55,820 nucleotides of DNA from a virus. The translations under genes were made by a program, and so were the position numbers. The DNA lies in the IMG/VR virus record IMGVR_UViG_3300012349_000007, positions 1 through 55,820 of that record. One strand, 5' to 3'. The stretch's first letter is position 1. Every line of letters starts with the position of its first letter. This document shows positions 27,283-51,398 of the stretch, one piece after another. The notes beneath the pieces were generated by a model. The model searched no databases. It saw nothing but the letters and a program-made list of their open reading frames with translations, and was not told the DNA's origin.

Positions 27283-27642
27283 TTACGTTGCCTCCATAAT
27301 TCTCGGAGAAGGACTCGAACCTCCACCCACATGGTCAACAGCCATGCGCTCTACCTCTCTTGAGCTATCCGAGAGCGGTTCCTCTATCACGACGCACAGC
27401 GTATACTTCCGACCTGTCATGATGTATGCACAAAATTTGTGATGTCCATCGAGTAGCGCAAACATACCCGTATGAGTGTCTGATGGTACGACAAAGAGCA
27501 GTCCTGGATACTTATTTGGGTAATCGAGCAAAAGCTGAATATACTCCAACAGCTTCTCAACATATCTCTGTTGGAACTCTTTAATCTGAATACACTCTAA
27601 AGATATCCATCTGATACTCAACTTCGCATTTGCGCTAATCAC
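27283..27642 (-). CDS. ParB/Srx-like protein overlapping the tRNA gene
   Basis: 119 residues from a GTG at 27642 (AGGTGG upstream, TAGTG overlap with the previous stop); an ATG at 27666 would overlap more. The motif FALLDGHHKFCAYIMTG resembles the DGHHR core of ParB-like nuclease/Srx folds. Residues from about 90 onward (SDSSREVERM...) are simply the tRNA-Asn gene read in frame, so the true domain may end there. Unusual: tRNA and protein overlap on the same strand. Confidence 0.6.
   Translation of the reverse strand: MISANAKLSIRWISLECIQIKEFQQRYVEKLLEYIQLLLDYPNKYPGLLFVVPSDTHTGMFALLDGHHKFCAYIMTGRKYTLCVVIEEPLSDSSREVERMAVDHVGGGSSPSPRIMEAT
27300..27374 (-). tRNA. tRNA-Asn (GTT)
   Basis: A complete cloverleaf: acceptor TCTCGGA/TCCGAGA, D stem GCTC/GAGC, anticodon stem CATGG/CCATG with loop CTGTTGA (anticodon GTT), T stem GGAGG/CCTTC (one G-T pair) with TTCGAGT loop, discriminator A. 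No CCA is encoded. It lies just upstream of terS, inside the 3' part of an ORF. Confidence 0.9.
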
Positions 27643-29610: not shown

Positions 29611-29723
29611 TAGGAATGTCAAAGGGTGTCTCGCTTGCCGTGAGATGCATCTGCTGAGAGTGTAGCACAAGTATTCTTGAAAAATCAAGAAATATCTTGT
29701 ATAACTTAACTAGGAATGTCAAA
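29611..29723. repeat. Two 13-bp direct repeats before the integrase
   Basis: TAGGAATGTCAAA occurs at 29611-29623 and 29711-29723, exactly 100 bp apart, upstream of the integrase start. They could be integrase or excisionase arm sites. The rest of 29457-29738 shows no gene. Confidence 0.45.
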
Positions 29724-29738
29724 CCTCCACACAGCAGT

Positions 29739-30779
29739 ATGACCAGAAACGACGAATGGCCGCCGTTTGCCTTTGCACCTTCAGACCCATGGGGAAGGTG
29801 CTATTTGTCATTCCTTCGCAGAAAGTTTGACCGATCTGGCAGTCAAAGTACGCTCGTCCACTACCGACAGTACCTCATCCAATTCTTCACGGAGCCCGTC
29901 GCAAAAATGCCAGATCGCTATACACGCGAGGATGTTGAGGCGTTTATTCATAGTCCTGGCCGGGGACCAGGGAGAGAAGGTGATCCGCCTTCTGTCGGCC
30001 TGATGAATAATAGGCTGAGCCTGTTAAACTCGTTCTACAACTATGCTGCAAGCTATAGCATCACTGGGGAAGACGGCAGTATAGAGCCATTAATGAAACG
30101 CATGTCACCGACTGCTGGGCTAAAGCACATGCAGCGGGAGCGTCCACCGTACCGTGCGATGACGGCTAATGAATTACAGCGCTTCTTTGATGCTATCCCC
30201 AAAGACACGGTTATCGGGCTCCGCGATAGAGCGTTATTTTTGACCTATTTCTACACGGCACGCAGGCGGAGCGAGATTGTTGATTTGCGCTGGGGCGACC
30301 TCGAATATGGAACCATCATTGATGGAAACATGCGGTACAATTCGTGGATTTACCATTTTCGTGGTAAAGGGCATAAGCGTCAAGATGACTCCGCGGAGTT
30401 GCCCCTCCCAGCGAAAGTAGCGATAGATCGCTATTTGGAAGTTTCGGGTCGGAAGGACAGCATCAAATCTGAAGACCCCATTTTCACTGCTGCTGATAGG
30501 CGATACAAAAGCAATCCACCGCGACCACTTCACCCTAACACGGTGTGGCACGCGGTGAAGGTCTACGCGGCTAAGGCAGGACTTGATCCGAGGAAAGTAA
30601 CAACGCACAGTTTCAGACACACAAGTGCCAGGCGTCGTTTTGAAGCCGGTTCAACTATTCGAGAAATTCAAATCCTGCTGCGTCACTCCACCATGGCCGT
30701 GACCCATCTGTATCTTGAAGAGTCGTCAGCAGCGGACCCTGGTGCGAAACTCCTGGAAAAGCTATTCGAAGATTTGTGA
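29739..30779 (+). CDS. int: Tyrosine integrase
   Basis: 346 residues from ATG 29739 (no strong ribosome binding site; a TTG at 29697 is upstream in frame). An N-terminal SAM-like core-binding domain (about 20-125) leads to the catalytic domain with RRRSEIV (first Arg), GKGHKR (Lys), HSFRHTSARR (His-x-x-Arg), LRHSTMAVT (His) and the nucleophile Tyr in THLYLE. Integrates the genome at a host site. It stands between the late and early arms, followed by a strong terminator-like hairpin. Confidence 0.9.
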   Translation: MTRNDEWPPFAFAPSDPWGRCYLSFLRRKFDRSGSQSTLVHYRQYLIQFFTEPVAKMPDRYTREDVEAFIHSPGRGPGREGDPPSVGLMNNRLSLLNSFYNYAASYSITGEDGSIEPLMKRMSPTAGLKHMQRERPPYRAMTANELQRFFDAIPKDTVIGLRDRALFLTYFYTARRRSEIVDLRWGDLEYGTIIDGNMRYNSWIYHFRGKGHKRQDDSAELPLPAKVAIDRYLEVSGRKDSIKSEDPIFTAADRRYKSNPPRPLHPNTVWHAVKVYAAKAGLDPRKVTTHSFRHTSARRRFEAGSTIREIQILLRHSTMAVTHLYLEESSAADPGAKLLEKLFEDL

Positions 30780-31147: not shown

Positions 31148-31176
31148 TTGCAATTCCTGAAATGGTATGGTATTCT
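31148..31176 (+). promoter_or_regulatory. Promoter for the first excisionase-like gene
   Basis: TTGCAA (31148-31153), 17 bp, then TATTCT (31171-31176) preceded by TGG (extended -10). The gene starts 50 nt downstream. Confidence 0.65.
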
Positions 31177-34356: not shown

Positions 34357-35871
34357 ATGAATCAGCATAGTGTGAAGACCGAAGAGCAAAAGGATAACGA
34401 CAATTACGCAAAGAACTTTACACGAGTTCCTAACATTCTTTTTGAGTCGTATAAGTATCTCACCAAAGAAGAGGTGCTTCTCTACATACGGCTGCGCTAT
34501 ATCTACTGGGATACGAAGCCGCGCTATCTCTCTCTGAGAGAACTGGCAGATATAACCGGATACTCGACAGGGGCATTAAGCAAAATGCTACCGCGCCTGA
34601 CGATCGTCGGTTTAATCCATGCTGAAATCAGAAGGAAAAAGGGCAAAGACGGTAAGGAAAAAGGCAATCCCATATATCACATCACCATCAATGATATATG
34701 GGAAGAAAACCGCAAGTTCTTCACAGAAGGGCATTTTGACCCAAGTGAAGCGCTACTTGTTCACGAAATGAATGAAACCAGTTCACCAAATGAACAGGAT
34801 ACACCGAAACCAGTTCACCAAATGAACAAGCCTGTTCATAAAATGAACGACCCTGTTCACGAAACCAGACAAGATAGTTCACCAAATGAACAGGATCAAG
34901 CACAAAATAACCCACATAAGACTAATAGTAAGACTATTGATAATACTTCAACACAAGAAGAGAGTGTTACGCCCACCATTGCAGACGTGCCGGCATGTGG
35001 CGCTAACGCGCCAGCACTCTCTGCTTTGCCACTTCAAGAAAAAATGCTTGAAGAGGAAACGATCTGCTCTAAGTGTGGCAATCTTACTATCACCCCAAAT
35101 GATTGCCCTTGGTGTAAAGCGTCAAAACAAGTTTCCCTCCAAGAGAAAGGACAGACCGATGGAAGCAGCAACAATAATCATCGTCATCTCAGCAGTCTCA
35201 ATAGCCACCAACCTCTTCGTCAGCAATTGGATACTGCTGACGATACGCATGGAGCTACGCCTACTCAACAGAAAGAAGGATTAACCGATGGACATGACAG
35301 CATTCACAACCCTACTCATCTTCTGGATCATGGTAGCAATCTTAGCATTGGCACTCACAGCGATCGTCATCCTGGAAAATCGCCCGTAGCCCAACAGACA
35401 TCCACCTCCAAGCCTGTTCAGGAAGTCCCCCCACTTGCCACTTTGAGCAAGGTGCCTGAACAGGCCGCGTTGATGGCACCTGCGGAACCGAAACCGCGTG
35501 CCAGATCGGCACCGAAAAAGGCCGTAGAGAAGCCAGCGGGCCCGCCTCCAAGCGAGATGGAGTGGAGCACACGCAAATGTATGATGTTGTTCGATTTCTG
35601 GCGTGGAGCGCCACTGATCGGTACGTACAAAAACTCGCAGGCGTCCACGTGTGCGAAGGGATTAGCCGCCAACTACACCGAGCAGCAGGTAGTTGATGCG
35701 AGAACGGATATGGAAGCTGACATTTATTGGATGTCTCACGGAGGAGTAGATATCTGCGAGGTAGCGAACAACATCCACAAATATGTCAGGAAGCGCCAAC
35801 TAACTATTGTGGAGAAAGCTCCAGTGCCGGTGAAAATTGACCGCGAATACTTGAAGAGAGTGAAGCCATGA
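34357..35871 (+). CDS. Replication initiator, lambda-O-like, with origin inside
   Basis: 504 residues. The N-terminus (about 15-125) is a winged helix with FTRVPNILFES and LSLRELADITGYSTGALSKM, the type of phage initiators. Residues 134-178 are a low-complexity Asn/Gln/Pro stretch coded by palindromic iterons. A zinc-knuckle with CSKCGN and CPWC lies at 237-254. Residues 268-344 have an odd His/Asn-rich sequence because two membrane-protein genes are overprinted there. The C-terminal domain (about 390-480: MMLFDFWRGAPLIG, ADIYWMSHGG) may bind the DnaB helicase encoded next (4-nt overlap). Confidence 0.75.
   Translation: MNQHSVKTEEQKDNDNYAKNFTRVPNILFESYKYLTKEEVLLYIRLRYIYWDTKPRYLSLRELADITGYSTGALSKMLPRLTIVGLIHAEIRRKKGKDGKEKGNPIYHITINDIWEENRKFFTEGHFDPSEALLVHEMNETSSPNEQDTPKPVHQMNKPVHKMNDPVHETRQDSSPNEQDQAQNNPHKTNSKTIDNTSTQEESVTPTIADVPACGANAPALSALPLQEKMLEEETICSKCGNLTITPNDCPWCKASKQVSLQEKGQTDGSSNNNHRHLSSLNSHQPLRQQLDTADDTHGATPTQQKEGLTDGHDSIHNPTHLLDHGSNLSIGTHSDRHPGKSPVAQQTSTSKPVQEVPPLATLSKVPEQAALMAPAEPKPRARSAPKKAVEKPAGPPPSEMEWSTRKCMMLFDFWRGAPLIGTYKNSQASTCAKGLAANYTEQQVVDARTDMEADIYWMSHGGVDICEVANNIHKYVRKRQLTIVEKAPVPVKIDREYLKRVKP
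34759..34891 (+). repeat. Origin iterons: five GTTCA-N5-TGAAC palindromes plus a half-site
   Basis: Perfect 15-bp copies at 34781, 34813, 34834 and 34877, an imperfect one at 34759 and a half-site at 34855. Start-to-start steps are 22, 32, 21, 21 and 22 bp, about two helical turns. They lie inside the initiator gene just after the winged-helix coding region, as in phage lambda. Confidence 0.8.
34892..34960 (+). other. AT-rich unwinding-element candidate
   Basis: An A-rich, T-rich stretch immediately downstream of the iterons (runs such as TAATAGTAAGACTATTGATAAT at about 34923-34944). In lambda-type origins such DNA melts next to the iterons. Inferred from position. Confidence 0.5.
35159..35284 (+). 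CDS. Overprinted small membrane protein 1
   Basis: 41 residues in the +1 frame inside the initiator gene. AAAGGA lies 7 nt before ATG 35159. Residues 5-28 are hydrophobic (TIIIVISAVSIATNLFV, then WILLTI), followed by a basic tail (RLLNRKKD). The hydrophobic run and well-spaced ribosome binding site argue for a real gene. Role unknown. Confidence 0.6.
   Translation: MEAATIIIVISAVSIATNLFVSNWILLTIRMELRLLNRKKD
35288..35389 (+). CDS. Overprinted small membrane protein 2
   Basis: 33 residues, same frame as the preceding nested gene. AAGGA is again 7 nt before the ATG, and only 3 nt separate the two. Residues 5-28 form one transmembrane segment (FTTLLIFWIMVAILALALTA), ENRP at the end. The matching ribosome-binding sites support both. 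Confidence 0.6.
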   Translation: MDMTAFTTLLIFWIMVAILALALTAIVILENRP

Positions 35872-37205
35872 CCGAGAAATGGGTACCAACCAACGTGGAG
35901 GCAGAGGAAAGCGTGCTTTCTCACTTGCTCAGTGCTCCACGCAAAATCACGGAAGTGGTAGATCGTTTATCCCCTGAGCACTTCTGTTCAGATCGCGCCA
36001 GCCGTGTCTACCAACTCATGGTGACGTTAGCGCATCAGGGGAAGGCATGTACCGTCTCTAACGTCTATGATGCCTGGGCAAGAGCATATGGGGTGGACGA
36101 TGAAGTCTATGATTTTCTTGAAGACCGCTATGGCCTCTTTTCTGCATTCATGACGCCTTTTGAAGACCAGGTGGAGAAAGTCATTCGCGTGCATACCATG
36201 CGCCGTCTCATCTCAGCCGCTCAGCATATCGCAGAAGTCGCCTATGCTCAGGATGACAATGCTATGGACGTAGCCGAGCAACTTATTTACGATATTGCCA
36301 GGGGCGTAGACGGTGATACAGTGGCAACGCTGGCGCAAGTGAAGCAGCGCTACATGCAAGAGTTTGAGCAACGGCGTGAAAACCTCCTCAACGGCATAGC
36401 CAATGGCATTCCGACCGGCTTTCATGAGCTAGATGTCATCTTAGGCGGTTTGCAGCCCTCCAATCTCTATACCCTCGCAGCTCGTCCTAGCCTGGGTAAG
36501 ACAGCCCTGGCACTCAACTTTGCTCTCTACATCGCTAGACATGCCCGCCGGTGCCTGTTTTTTAGCCTGGAGATGAGTGAGTTAGAGTTATTCCAGCGCT
36601 TGCTAGCCATAGAAACGCCTGTCGATCAATCGTTCTTACGCGACGGCGATGTGAACGAGCAGGAACTTGAAGATATCCGCTACACGGCTAACGACCTGGC
36701 TGAACTCGATATGTTGATAGATGACCGAACCTATACCCTGGCTGGTATATGCAGCAAGGCCCGGCGTGAACATGCCCGCAAACCACTTAATCTCATCGTG
36801 GTTGATTACCTCCAATTGATCGATACTTCCCCGGAAGGGCGAAACAAGAACAAGATGCGCTACGAGGAAGTAGGCGAATTCTCGAAACGGTTGAAACGTC
36901 TGGCCAAAGAGTTGAAAGTGCCGGTCATTGCCATAGCGCAACTCAACCGCGACGTGGAAAGCCGACAAAGCCCAAAGCCGCGTATGTCTGATTTAGGCGA
37001 AAGTGGCAAACTTGAGCAGGATATGGACGTTGTGGCCTTCGTCTACTGCGAGGAAACTGAGCTTGCAAAAAAGGAGAACTGCGAACCGTACAAAGTCCAT
37101 GTTCACGTGGCCAAGCACCGTAATGGACGCTTAGGCGATGTCGAGTTGTGGTTCAGGCCCCGGATCACCAAATTCCAGGATGAGGAGCCGGACTATGAGC
37201 AATGA
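35868..37205 (+). CDS. dnaB: Replicative DNA helicase (DnaB-like)
   Basis: 445 residues. N-terminal DnaB domain (about 1-110), linker, and RecA-type ATPase domain with Walker A ARPSLGKT (205-212), FFSLEMS (H1a), LIVVDYLQLI (Walker B, about 307-316), and IAQLNRDVESR with the arginine finger motif. Unwinds DNA at the fork. Overlaps the initiator stop (ATGA) and the next gene. Confidence 0.95.
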   Translation: MTEKWVPTNVEAEESVLSHLLSAPRKITEVVDRLSPEHFCSDRASRVYQLMVTLAHQGKACTVSNVYDAWARAYGVDDEVYDFLEDRYGLFSAFMTPFEDQVEKVIRVHTMRRLISAAQHIAEVAYAQDDNAMDVAEQLIYDIARGVDGDTVATLAQVKQRYMQEFEQRRENLLNGIANGIPTGFHELDVILGGLQPSNLYTLAARPSLGKTALALNFALYIARHARRCLFFSLEMSELELFQRLLAIETPVDQSFLRDGDVNEQELEDIRYTANDLAELDMLIDDRTYTLAGICSKARREHARKPLNLIVVDYLQLIDTSPEGRNKNKMRYEEVGEFSKRLKRLAKELKVPVIAIAQLNRDVESRQSPKPRMSDLGESGKLEQDMDVVAFVYCEETELAKKENCEPYKVHVHVAKHRNGRLGDVELWFRPRITKFQDEEPDYEQ

Positions 37206-40365: not shown

Positions 40366-41118
40366 ATGTATACCTACACATTGTCTTATCCTGAAGATTA
40401 CCTTGAGCTAGAGAAAGCAGGTACCATCTTCTATGTGGGTAAGGGAACGGGTAATAGGATACATCAGCATGAGAGGGAGGCTAGAAGGGGCGGGAAAGGC
40501 TATAAGTGTAACGTTATCCGCAAGATAGAAGCTTTGGGAGGAAAGGTTGTCAAAAAGATACTTGCCCACTTCAGCACACATAAAGAGGCTACTTGGTATG
40601 AAATAGCGTTAATCTTTTTTCTGCCTAATTTAACGAACTTAACATTAGGCGGTGATGGTTTAGTAGGCTATGTCATGACCACAGAGCACAAAACAAACAT
40701 AGGCAAGTCGATTAAGGTCTATACCCGTACTGAAGAGGAAAAGAAGCATTTAGCAGTACTTCGTACTGGCAAAACCACTTCTGCTGAGACACGAATAAGG
40801 CAGGGCATAGCTCATCAAGAGTTAACCCATACTGAGGAGGCAAAGCGGAAAATTCAAGTTGCTAATACGGGACGCAAAATGCCGAAAGAAGCCATTGAAA
40901 GGCGCATATTGATTATGGAAGGGAAGCCAAGGATCATCAATCACTCAGGGAGAACCTATTCGGGGCTCATTGCGCCTAATGGTCAACAGTACGATAACAT
41001 CACCAATCTTACAGCATTTTGTAGAGAACATGGGTTACAACAACCTCAATTAAATCTGGTTGCAAATGGTAAGCGAAAATCATATAAGGGTTGGCATTTG
41101 CGACAAGAGGGAGCATAG
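40366..41118 (+). CDS. GIY-YIG homing endonuclease with NUMOD-type DNA-binding repeats
   Basis: 250 residues. N-terminal GIY-YIG variant (VYTLSYP-like start, FYVGKGTGNRIHQH, then KKILAHFSTHKEATWYEIALI; residues 1-95). The middle has NUMOD3-like SAETRIRQGIAHQ, AKRKIQVANTGRKMP. The C-terminus has an IAPNGQQYDNITNLTAFCREH minor-groove module. AAAGGAG ribosome site. A typical free-standing homing nuclease. Flanked by the direct repeat GGTATTCCTA (40331, 41121). AT-rich relative to its neighbours, suggesting acquisition. Confidence 0.88.
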   Translation: MYTYTLSYPEDYLELEKAGTIFYVGKGTGNRIHQHEREARRGGKGYKCNVIRKIEALGGKVVKKILAHFSTHKEATWYEIALIFFLPNLTNLTLGGDGLVGYVMTTEHKTNIGKSIKVYTRTEEEKKHLAVLRTGKTTSAETRIRQGIAHQELTHTEEAKRKIQVANTGRKMPKEAIERRILIMEGKPRIINHSGRTYSGLIAPNGQQYDNITNLTAFCREHGLQQPQLNLVANGKRKSYKGWHLRQEGA

Positions 41119-50468: not shown

Positions 50469-51398
50469 ATGGATGGCCTTGTTCCCTATCAGCAACAGCG
50501 TATAGAGCAATCAATTGTAGACGTTTTAAAGATCCTTGATAGCAAGGAGTCAAAGCGAGTCTACAATCTTGATATTGCCTACTTTGCTGAGTGGATGAAA
50601 GAAAAGCACCTGACTTACCAATCTGTGACTACCTCAGATATTATCGCTTATCGTGAGCTGCTAGGGCAGACATTTAAGAAAGCTACATCGCAACGCATGT
50701 TTTCAGTTATTCGACGTCTTTTTAAGATGCTTGTTAGTCGAGGTGTGCGAACTGATGACCCTATCACGGATGTAAAGGGTTTCAAGCTTGCTAATGAGAG
50801 TACCCATATAGCTCTGAGCAAAAAGCAAGCAGAAAATCTATTAGACTCAATTGATACAAGCAGCCCAAAGGGCAAGCGTGATTATGCATTACTATCTCTC
50901 CTTTTACGGACTGGCATCCGACGCTCTGAATGTGCTGCATTGAATATAGGCGACTTAAGTACAGAGGAGGGATATCATATTGCCACTATCCAACATGGAA
51001 AAGGAGATAAACGGCGTATCGTGAAAATACCTGTAGACGTCTTTCGCTCCTTAGAGAGATATATACAAGCCTCTGGTAGAACTATAACATCACTGGATAA
51101 CCCGCTCTTTATCGGTTTTGATAGACGTCCTGAGTATGAAAGCCAACGCATTAGCGAGAAGGTGATAGAGCGTGTGGTTAGAGAATATGGTAAAAATATT
51201 GGCTTCTTACCTCCAAAGAGGCTTACCCCTCACGATTTGCGGACGTCGTTTATCACACTCTCAAGGGAAGGTGGAGCTACCTTAGAGCAGAGGCAATTTG
51301 CAGCAGGTCATTCAGACCCGCGCACAACACAACGCTATGATGTCCGCAAACTAAACCTAGACCATAATGCAGTAGATTATATTCACTTGTGGGAGTAA
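50469..51398 (+). CDS. Tyrosine recombinase 2 (XerC/D-like)
   Basis: 309 residues. N-terminal core-binding domain (1-105), then catalytic domain with TGIRRSECAA (Arg), HGKGDKRR (Lys), HDLRTSF (His-x-x-Arg), AGHSDPRTTQRYD (His and Tyr). Start ATG 50469. It is expressed from its own promoter and coupled to an HNH gene. It may resolve dimers, integrate at another site, or move a cassette. Confidence 0.88.
   Translation: MDGLVPYQQQRIEQSIVDVLKILDSKESKRVYNLDIAYFAEWMKEKHLTYQSVTTSDIIAYRELLGQTFKKATSQRMFSVIRRLFKMLVSRGVRTDDPITDVKGFKLANESTHIALSKKQAENLLDSIDTSSPKGKRDYALLSLLLRTGIRRSECAALNIGDLSTEEGYHIATIQHGKGDKRRIVKIPVDVFRSLERYIQASGRTITSLDNPLFIGFDRRPEYESQRISEKVIERVVREYGKNIGFLPPKRLTPHDLRTSFITLSREGGATLEQRQFAAGHSDPRTTQRYDVRKLNLDHNAVDYIHLWE

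What the first reader, a model, noticed from the sequence alone, without database searches (positions are those of the whole stretch)
34759..34960. A lambda-like replication origin inside the initiator gene
Four perfect and one imperfect GTTCA-N5-TGAAC palindromes and a half-site, spaced 21-22 bp with one 32-bp step, lie right after the winged-helix coding part and before an AT-rich stretch. This is the layout of phage lambda's ori in gene O, with different iterons. The palindromes code for a repetitive Asn/His/Gln linker.
Basis: partly seen in the sequence, partly recalled or inferred. Interest (0 to 1): 0.75.

Follow-up and report, generated by a model that had tools for sequence, protein, structure and literature searches.

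The report
Phage origin inside its initiator gene
This phage almost certainly starts copying its DNA at a row of short mirror-image sites inside the gene for its own starter protein, and the same sites recur in starter genes of many very different phages, with one helix of the protein apparently deciding which site is read.

Summary
Four perfect GTTCA-N5-TGAAC palindromes, one with a single mismatch and one half-site (34759-34891) lie on one helical face inside a 504-aa initiator gene (34357-35871). They follow its winged-helix domain and precede an AT-rich stretch and a DnaB gene. The motif is held at DNA level: it is read in both open frames, and synonymous-codon shuffling reproduces four sites in 1 of 20,000 trials.

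Tools went further. The same double palindrome occurs in at least 119 viral stretches, against 1 for the reversed motif. Mostly it sits in the linker of winged-helix initiators from many families, often just upstream of a helicase or helicase-loader gene. The window's domain folds like the RepA_N plasmid initiators, whose in-gene origin is known for pSK41. Recognition-helix position 3 (window G72) is Gly, Ala or Asn in 41 of 43 clusters with this iteron, but in 3 of 27 with other iterons. A prediction noted beforehand held mainly on its negative side: 0 of 16 initiators with another residue had the iteron; 13 of 16 with Gly/Ala/Asn did, though 12 of those are one family.

Best reading: a lambda-type origin, a known kind, with a widely shared iteron and a likely helix-iteron code. 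Replication and binding are untested.

The parts
34357..35871 (+). initiator gene (504 aa, O-like): winged-helix N-terminal domain, iteron-encoding linker, C-terminal domain
   Evidence: PHROG replication initiation O-like 2.2e-6; array-bearing relatives
34357..34746 (+). DNA-binding winged-helix domain, aa 1-130
   Evidence: AF2 pLDDT 84; best structural matches 4pql, 4pt7, 5kbj, 4pta, Z 9.2-9.8
34564..34584 (+). putative recognition helix S70-T-G72-A-L-S-K76
   Evidence: helix 71-83 in the model; covaries with iteron type
34759..34773 (.). iteron 1, one mismatch, GTTCACGAAATGAAT
34781..34795 (.). iteron 2, perfect
34813..34827 (.). iteron 3, perfect
34834..34848 (.). iteron 4, perfect
34855..34869 (.). 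iteron 5, half-site GTTCAC only
   Evidence: sequence
34877..34891 (.). iteron 6, perfect
34892..34979 (.). AT-rich, A-biased stretch, candidate unwinding region
   Evidence: 36% GC in the 34860-34979 windows
35868..37205 (+). DnaB-type replicative helicase, overlaps the initiator stop
   Evidence: Pfam DnaB_C 7.3e-82, DnaB N 1.9e-12

Best explanation
A theta-type replication origin lies inside the initiator gene. Dimers of the initiator's N-terminal winged helix bind the GTTCA-N5-TGAAC iterons, which are stacked on one face of the DNA, form a nucleoprotein complex, strain open the adjacent AT-rich stretch, and recruit the DnaB helicase encoded immediately downstream, probably through the linker and C-terminal domain. 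Shown by sequence and model: the array, its DNA-level conservation, position, domain fold, neighbours, and helix-iteron covariation. Inferred: dimer binding, unwinding, helicase loading.
For: Array and codon null. At least 119 viral stretches with the double motif against 1 for the reversed motif; 105 have three or more sites, 83 of these within one ORF of 120 aa or more; 67 of 93 in-ORF loci use both open frames and none the stop-bearing frame. Arrays start at median aa 111 of proteins of median 291 aa. Among 61 non-redundant array proteins: 41 phrog_270 replication initiation, 38 O-like, 29 HTH_36, 6 DnaB_2/DnaD_N, 4 Phage_rep_O. Next genes include 12 DnaB, 12 DnaC-like loaders, 2 G39P, 1 lambda P among 50. 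Fold and profile link to RepA_N initiators; pSK41 RepA carries TGTC-N5-GACA iterons at 23-bp steps from about aa 138. Helix position 3 is G/A/N in 41/43 versus 3/27 clusters, Fisher 2e-13; blind set 13/16 versus 0/16 loci.
Against: No binding or replication data. The covariation classes were sampled by different routes and related proteins are not fully independent: the blind test reduced to 50%-identity clusters is 2/3 versus 0/12, p 0.03, and 12 of its 13 positives are one family. L352 keeps Gly at position 3 yet has GTTCC sites. Cumulative GC skew has its minimum near 28 kb, not 34.8 kb. Paired GTTCA-N5-TGAAC sites also occur in bacterial chromosomes, mostly outside ORFs, so the motif alone is not diagnostic.
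Confidence: 0.86

Rival explanations
1. The palindromes are an operator: the initiator or another winged-helix regulator binds them to control transcription, not replication.
For: Paired GTTCA-N5-TGAAC sites occur mostly outside ORFs in Pelagibacteraceae, Rhodospirillales and Actinobacteria, as regulator sites would.
Against: Here the sites lie about 400 bp inside a gene, in arrays of 3-7, repeatedly in initiator genes next to helicase or loader genes. A side role in autoregulation is not excluded.
Confidence: 0.08
2. The repeats are kept for the peptide (a flexible linker or helicase-binding repeat).
For: The linker is low in complexity and repetitive.
Against: The same DNA is read as VHxMN and as SxxE in one protein; 67 of 93 loci use both frames. 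Synonymous-codon shuffling destroys the sites.
Confidence: 0.02
3. The palindromes act as hairpins in RNA or single-stranded DNA (attenuation, antitermination, single-strand origin).
For: The strand folds better than shuffles (z -4.4), as any inverted repeats would.
Against: Iteron sequence follows the protein's recognition helix across families, which a hairpin role does not predict.
Confidence: 0.02
4. A partition (centromere) site bound by a winged-helix adaptor, as in TubR-type systems.
For: Winged-helix protein plus iterons.
Against: Next gene is DnaB; neighbours across phages are helicases and loaders, with a ParA-type domain in only two.
Confidence: 0.02

Closest known systems
Phage lambda gene O and ori-lambda
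   Same: iterons in the middle of the initiator gene behind a winged-helix domain (lambda's begin at about aa 116, steps 20, 24, 23 bp), followed by AT-rich DNA; lambda and Stx O proteins are dimers, and iterons are needed for origin function in a Stx phage (PMC7466680)
   Different: lambda iterons are ATCCCTCAAAACGAGGGA-type, 4 copies; the next gene in lambda is loader P, here DnaB itself; the window profile scores lambda O only weakly (12.5 bits)
RepA_N plasmid initiators (pSK41, pTZ2162)
   Same: closest fold (Z 9.2-9.8); pSK41 ori lies centrally within rep (PMC5703833), and one search shows palindromic repeats there at 23-bp steps
   Different: iteron TGTC-N5-GACA; no Pfam RepA_N match for the window protein; a plasmid, with no DnaB gene annotated next to rep
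HTH_36 phage initiators with in-gene iterons
   Same: 29 of 61 array proteins match HTH_36; same gene layout and often the same iteron
   Different: the window protein itself does not match HTH_36; most HTH_36 relatives sampled use other iterons (GAAG, GCAG, GTAAAG, GTGAC types)

Membership tests
lambda-type origin within an O-like initiator gene | initiator with N-terminal winged-helix DNA-binding domain | tested here: met
lambda-type origin within an O-like initiator gene | array of palindromic iterons inside the gene, behind that domain | tested here: met
lambda-type origin within an O-like initiator gene | AT-rich region next to the iterons | tested here: met
   36% GC; modest
lambda-type origin within an O-like initiator gene | helicase or helicase loader encoded next | tested here: met
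   DnaB; it is the helicase, not a P-type loader
lambda-type origin within an O-like initiator gene | the initiator binds the iterons and replication starts there | not testable with these tools
   indirect support by covariation
the lambda iteron group itself | lambda's own iteron sequence | tested here: not met
   so alike in layout, not a member of the lambda iteron group
RepA_N initiators (PF06970) | match to the RepA_N domain model | tested here: not met
   no match up to E 0.1, although the fold is closest to RepA_N
HTH_36 (PF13730) | match to the model | tested here: not met
   no match for the window protein
DnaD/DnaB_2 primosome proteins | DnaD N-terminal winged helix plus DnaB_2 domain | tested here: inconclusive
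   profile reaches DnaD-N chains at 1.3e-4; no Pfam DnaB_2 match in the window protein

The most novel reading that the evidence does not exclude
In-gene origins of tailed phages follow a readable code: the third position of the initiator's recognition helix sets the iteron. Gly/Ala/Asn goes with GTTCA-N5-TGAAC, Pro with GTAA-type, Arg or His often with GTGCA-type. One iteron class is shared by initiators of many families and by phages or prophages of several bacterial phyla, so origins could be predicted from the protein alone.
Probability: 0.55. Interest if true: 0.78.

Novelty: new variant of a known kind. Interest (0 to 1): 0.62.

Why it matters
Origins of most uncultured phages are unknown. 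A single iteron shared over many initiator families, with a helix residue that foretells iteron type, would let origins be found from sequence and tested by one mutation. It also ties lambda O, HTH_36 phage initiators and RepA_N plasmid initiators to one common design: a winged helix that reads repeats inside its own gene.

Tried and rejected
Protein search of the whole initiator in viral contigs and named phages gave nothing; searching with the N-terminal domain only worked. GC skew did not locate the origin: its minimum lies near 28 kb, where gene direction turns. Helical phasing across phages is weak: unforced spacings give Rayleigh p 0.005-0.03 for periods 10.5-11.0 and 0.016 for a 3-bp period, so I claim phasing for the window only. 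The idea that the motif is unique to origins was dropped after the bacterial genome scan. The idea that GTTCA is universal in such initiators was dropped: only 7 of 80 HTH_36 relatives chosen by domain have it. Query A6 was too divergent to search. Literature: no open-access paper holding the written motif in a phage-origin context was found, but the library lacks most subscription journals, so this does not show it is unknown.

Full report
What is there. The region 34759-34891 holds four perfect GTTCA-N5-TGAAC palindromes, one with a single mismatch and one half-site. They lie in the reading frame 34357-35871, 504 aa, whose N-terminal part resembles phage O-like initiators (phrog_678, 2.2e-6). 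The next gene, overlapping by 4 bp, is a DnaB helicase. Downstream of the array GC drops to 36%. The window is one viral record of 55,820 bases with tail, terminase and integrase genes.

More than chance. Four perfect sites in 111 bp compare with about 0.05 expected in the whole window. Holding the protein fixed and shuffling synonymous codons gives four sites in 1 of 20,000 trials. Sites are read in two frames (VHxMN and SSPNEQ), so the DNA, not the peptide, is conserved. All six lie within about 0.15 turn of one face.

The motif in other phages. Of the 119, 105 have three or more sites and 83 of those lie within a single ORF. The arrays start at median aa 111. Non-redundant array proteins match many initiator families; most are under 25% identical to the window protein. 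The gene directly downstream is often a DnaB helicase or a DnaC-like loader, and in a few cases G39P or lambda P. Some prophage-like loci in bacterial genomes carry arrays too: Corynebacterium phocae, Bacteroidales, Treponema, Campylobacteraceae, Anaerolineaceae. A named phage, Alcaligenes phage Piluca, has three sites in a gene annotated as hypothetical.

Which protein part reads it. The window domain was modelled at pLDDT 84. The four best structural matches are RepA_N initiators (4pql, 4pt7, 5kbj, 4pta, Z 9.2-9.8), above the next rows at 8.2 and below. The sequence profile reaches DnaD-N and RepA_N chains, and weakly lambda O and pSK41 RepA. pSK41 RepA carries its own repeats TGTC-N5-GACA at 23-bp steps from about aa 138, and its origin is reported to lie within rep (PMC5703833).

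Helix and iteron change together. Searching with the window's N-terminal domain alone gave nine relatives. Seven carry the array; L242 has one perfect site and degenerate ones; L243, about 60% identical in the domain, has GTTC(T/C)-N5-(A/G)GAAC instead, with Gly72 replaced by Ser and Ser70 by Ala. Across 70 clusters, position 3 is Gly, Ala or Asn in 41 of 43 with GTTCA arrays and in 3 of 27 with others. Other pairings: S/T-D-R-T with GAAG-type, G/S-E-R with GCAG-type, S-R-P-T with GTAAAG. I noted a prediction before fetching initiators by fragments that end before the helix. Result on new contigs: Gly/Ala/Asn, 13 of 16 with GTTCA arrays; other residues, 0 of 16 (p 3e-6 by locus, 0.03 by 50%-identity cluster). 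The positive half rests mainly on one family (12 loci); exceptions are L445/L446 (short ORF without array) and L448 (GTCCA-type site). Five of six blind loci with Pro at position 3 have exact GTAA-N7-TTAC sites (L435, L436, L438, L442, L450; not L424), and several with Arg or His have GTGCA-type sites (L426, L434, L441, L449). These last pairings were seen after the fact. Helices of the GTTCY set were read by eye, and L352 breaks the rule.

Mechanism. Inferred from lambda and RepA_N: initiator dimers bind each palindrome, stack, open the AT-rich side and hand over the helicase. What is shown here is anatomy, conservation, fold and covariation; binding, unwinding and loading are not shown.

Limits. 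The motif in pairs is also found mostly outside ORFs in bacterial chromosomes, so arrays within an initiator gene, not the motif alone, mark an origin. The layout is known from lambda and RepA_N plasmids; what appears new is the breadth of one iteron and its link to a helix residue, with the caveat that most subscription literature could not be searched.

Noticed in passing
L177:331-393, L187:6670-6732, L128:3183-3245: Streptomyces and Kitasatospora genes resembling ParB/KorB carry three in-frame GTTCA-N5-TGAAC sites 24 bp apart, coding SLSEQ/SPSEQ repeats at the DNA-binding region.
   Followed up: no
L124, L126, L130, L135 and others (Pelagibacteraceae; also Rhodospirillales): Paired GTTCA-N5-TGAAC sites 20-25 bp apart outside ORFs, probably operators of an unknown regulator.
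   Followed up: no
L132, L169, L171, L197, L210, L235: Pairs of GTTCATGNCATGAAC-like sites mostly 22 bp apart outside ORFs, in actinobacterial genomes where the organism was shown; apparently a separate conserved operator.
   Followed up: no
L243:4139-4921 and L098:2311-3090: Two relatives of the window initiator are followed by a DnaC-like loader, where the window, L242 and L248 have DnaB: the helicase module is swapped behind the same type of initiator.
   Followed up: partly
L445:2001-2900: Two O-like genes in a row; the first is short and has no iteron array.
   Followed up: no
window 29697-30779 and 50469-51398: Two tyrosine integrases, with two small HTH_17 excisionase-like genes at 31167 and 33981.
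   Followed up: no
window 40366-41118: GIY-YIG endonuclease with a NUMOD3 motif, homing-endonuclease-like.
   Followed up: no
window 27300-27374: tRNA-Asn gene (minus strand) at the point where gene direction and GC skew turn.
   Followed up: no
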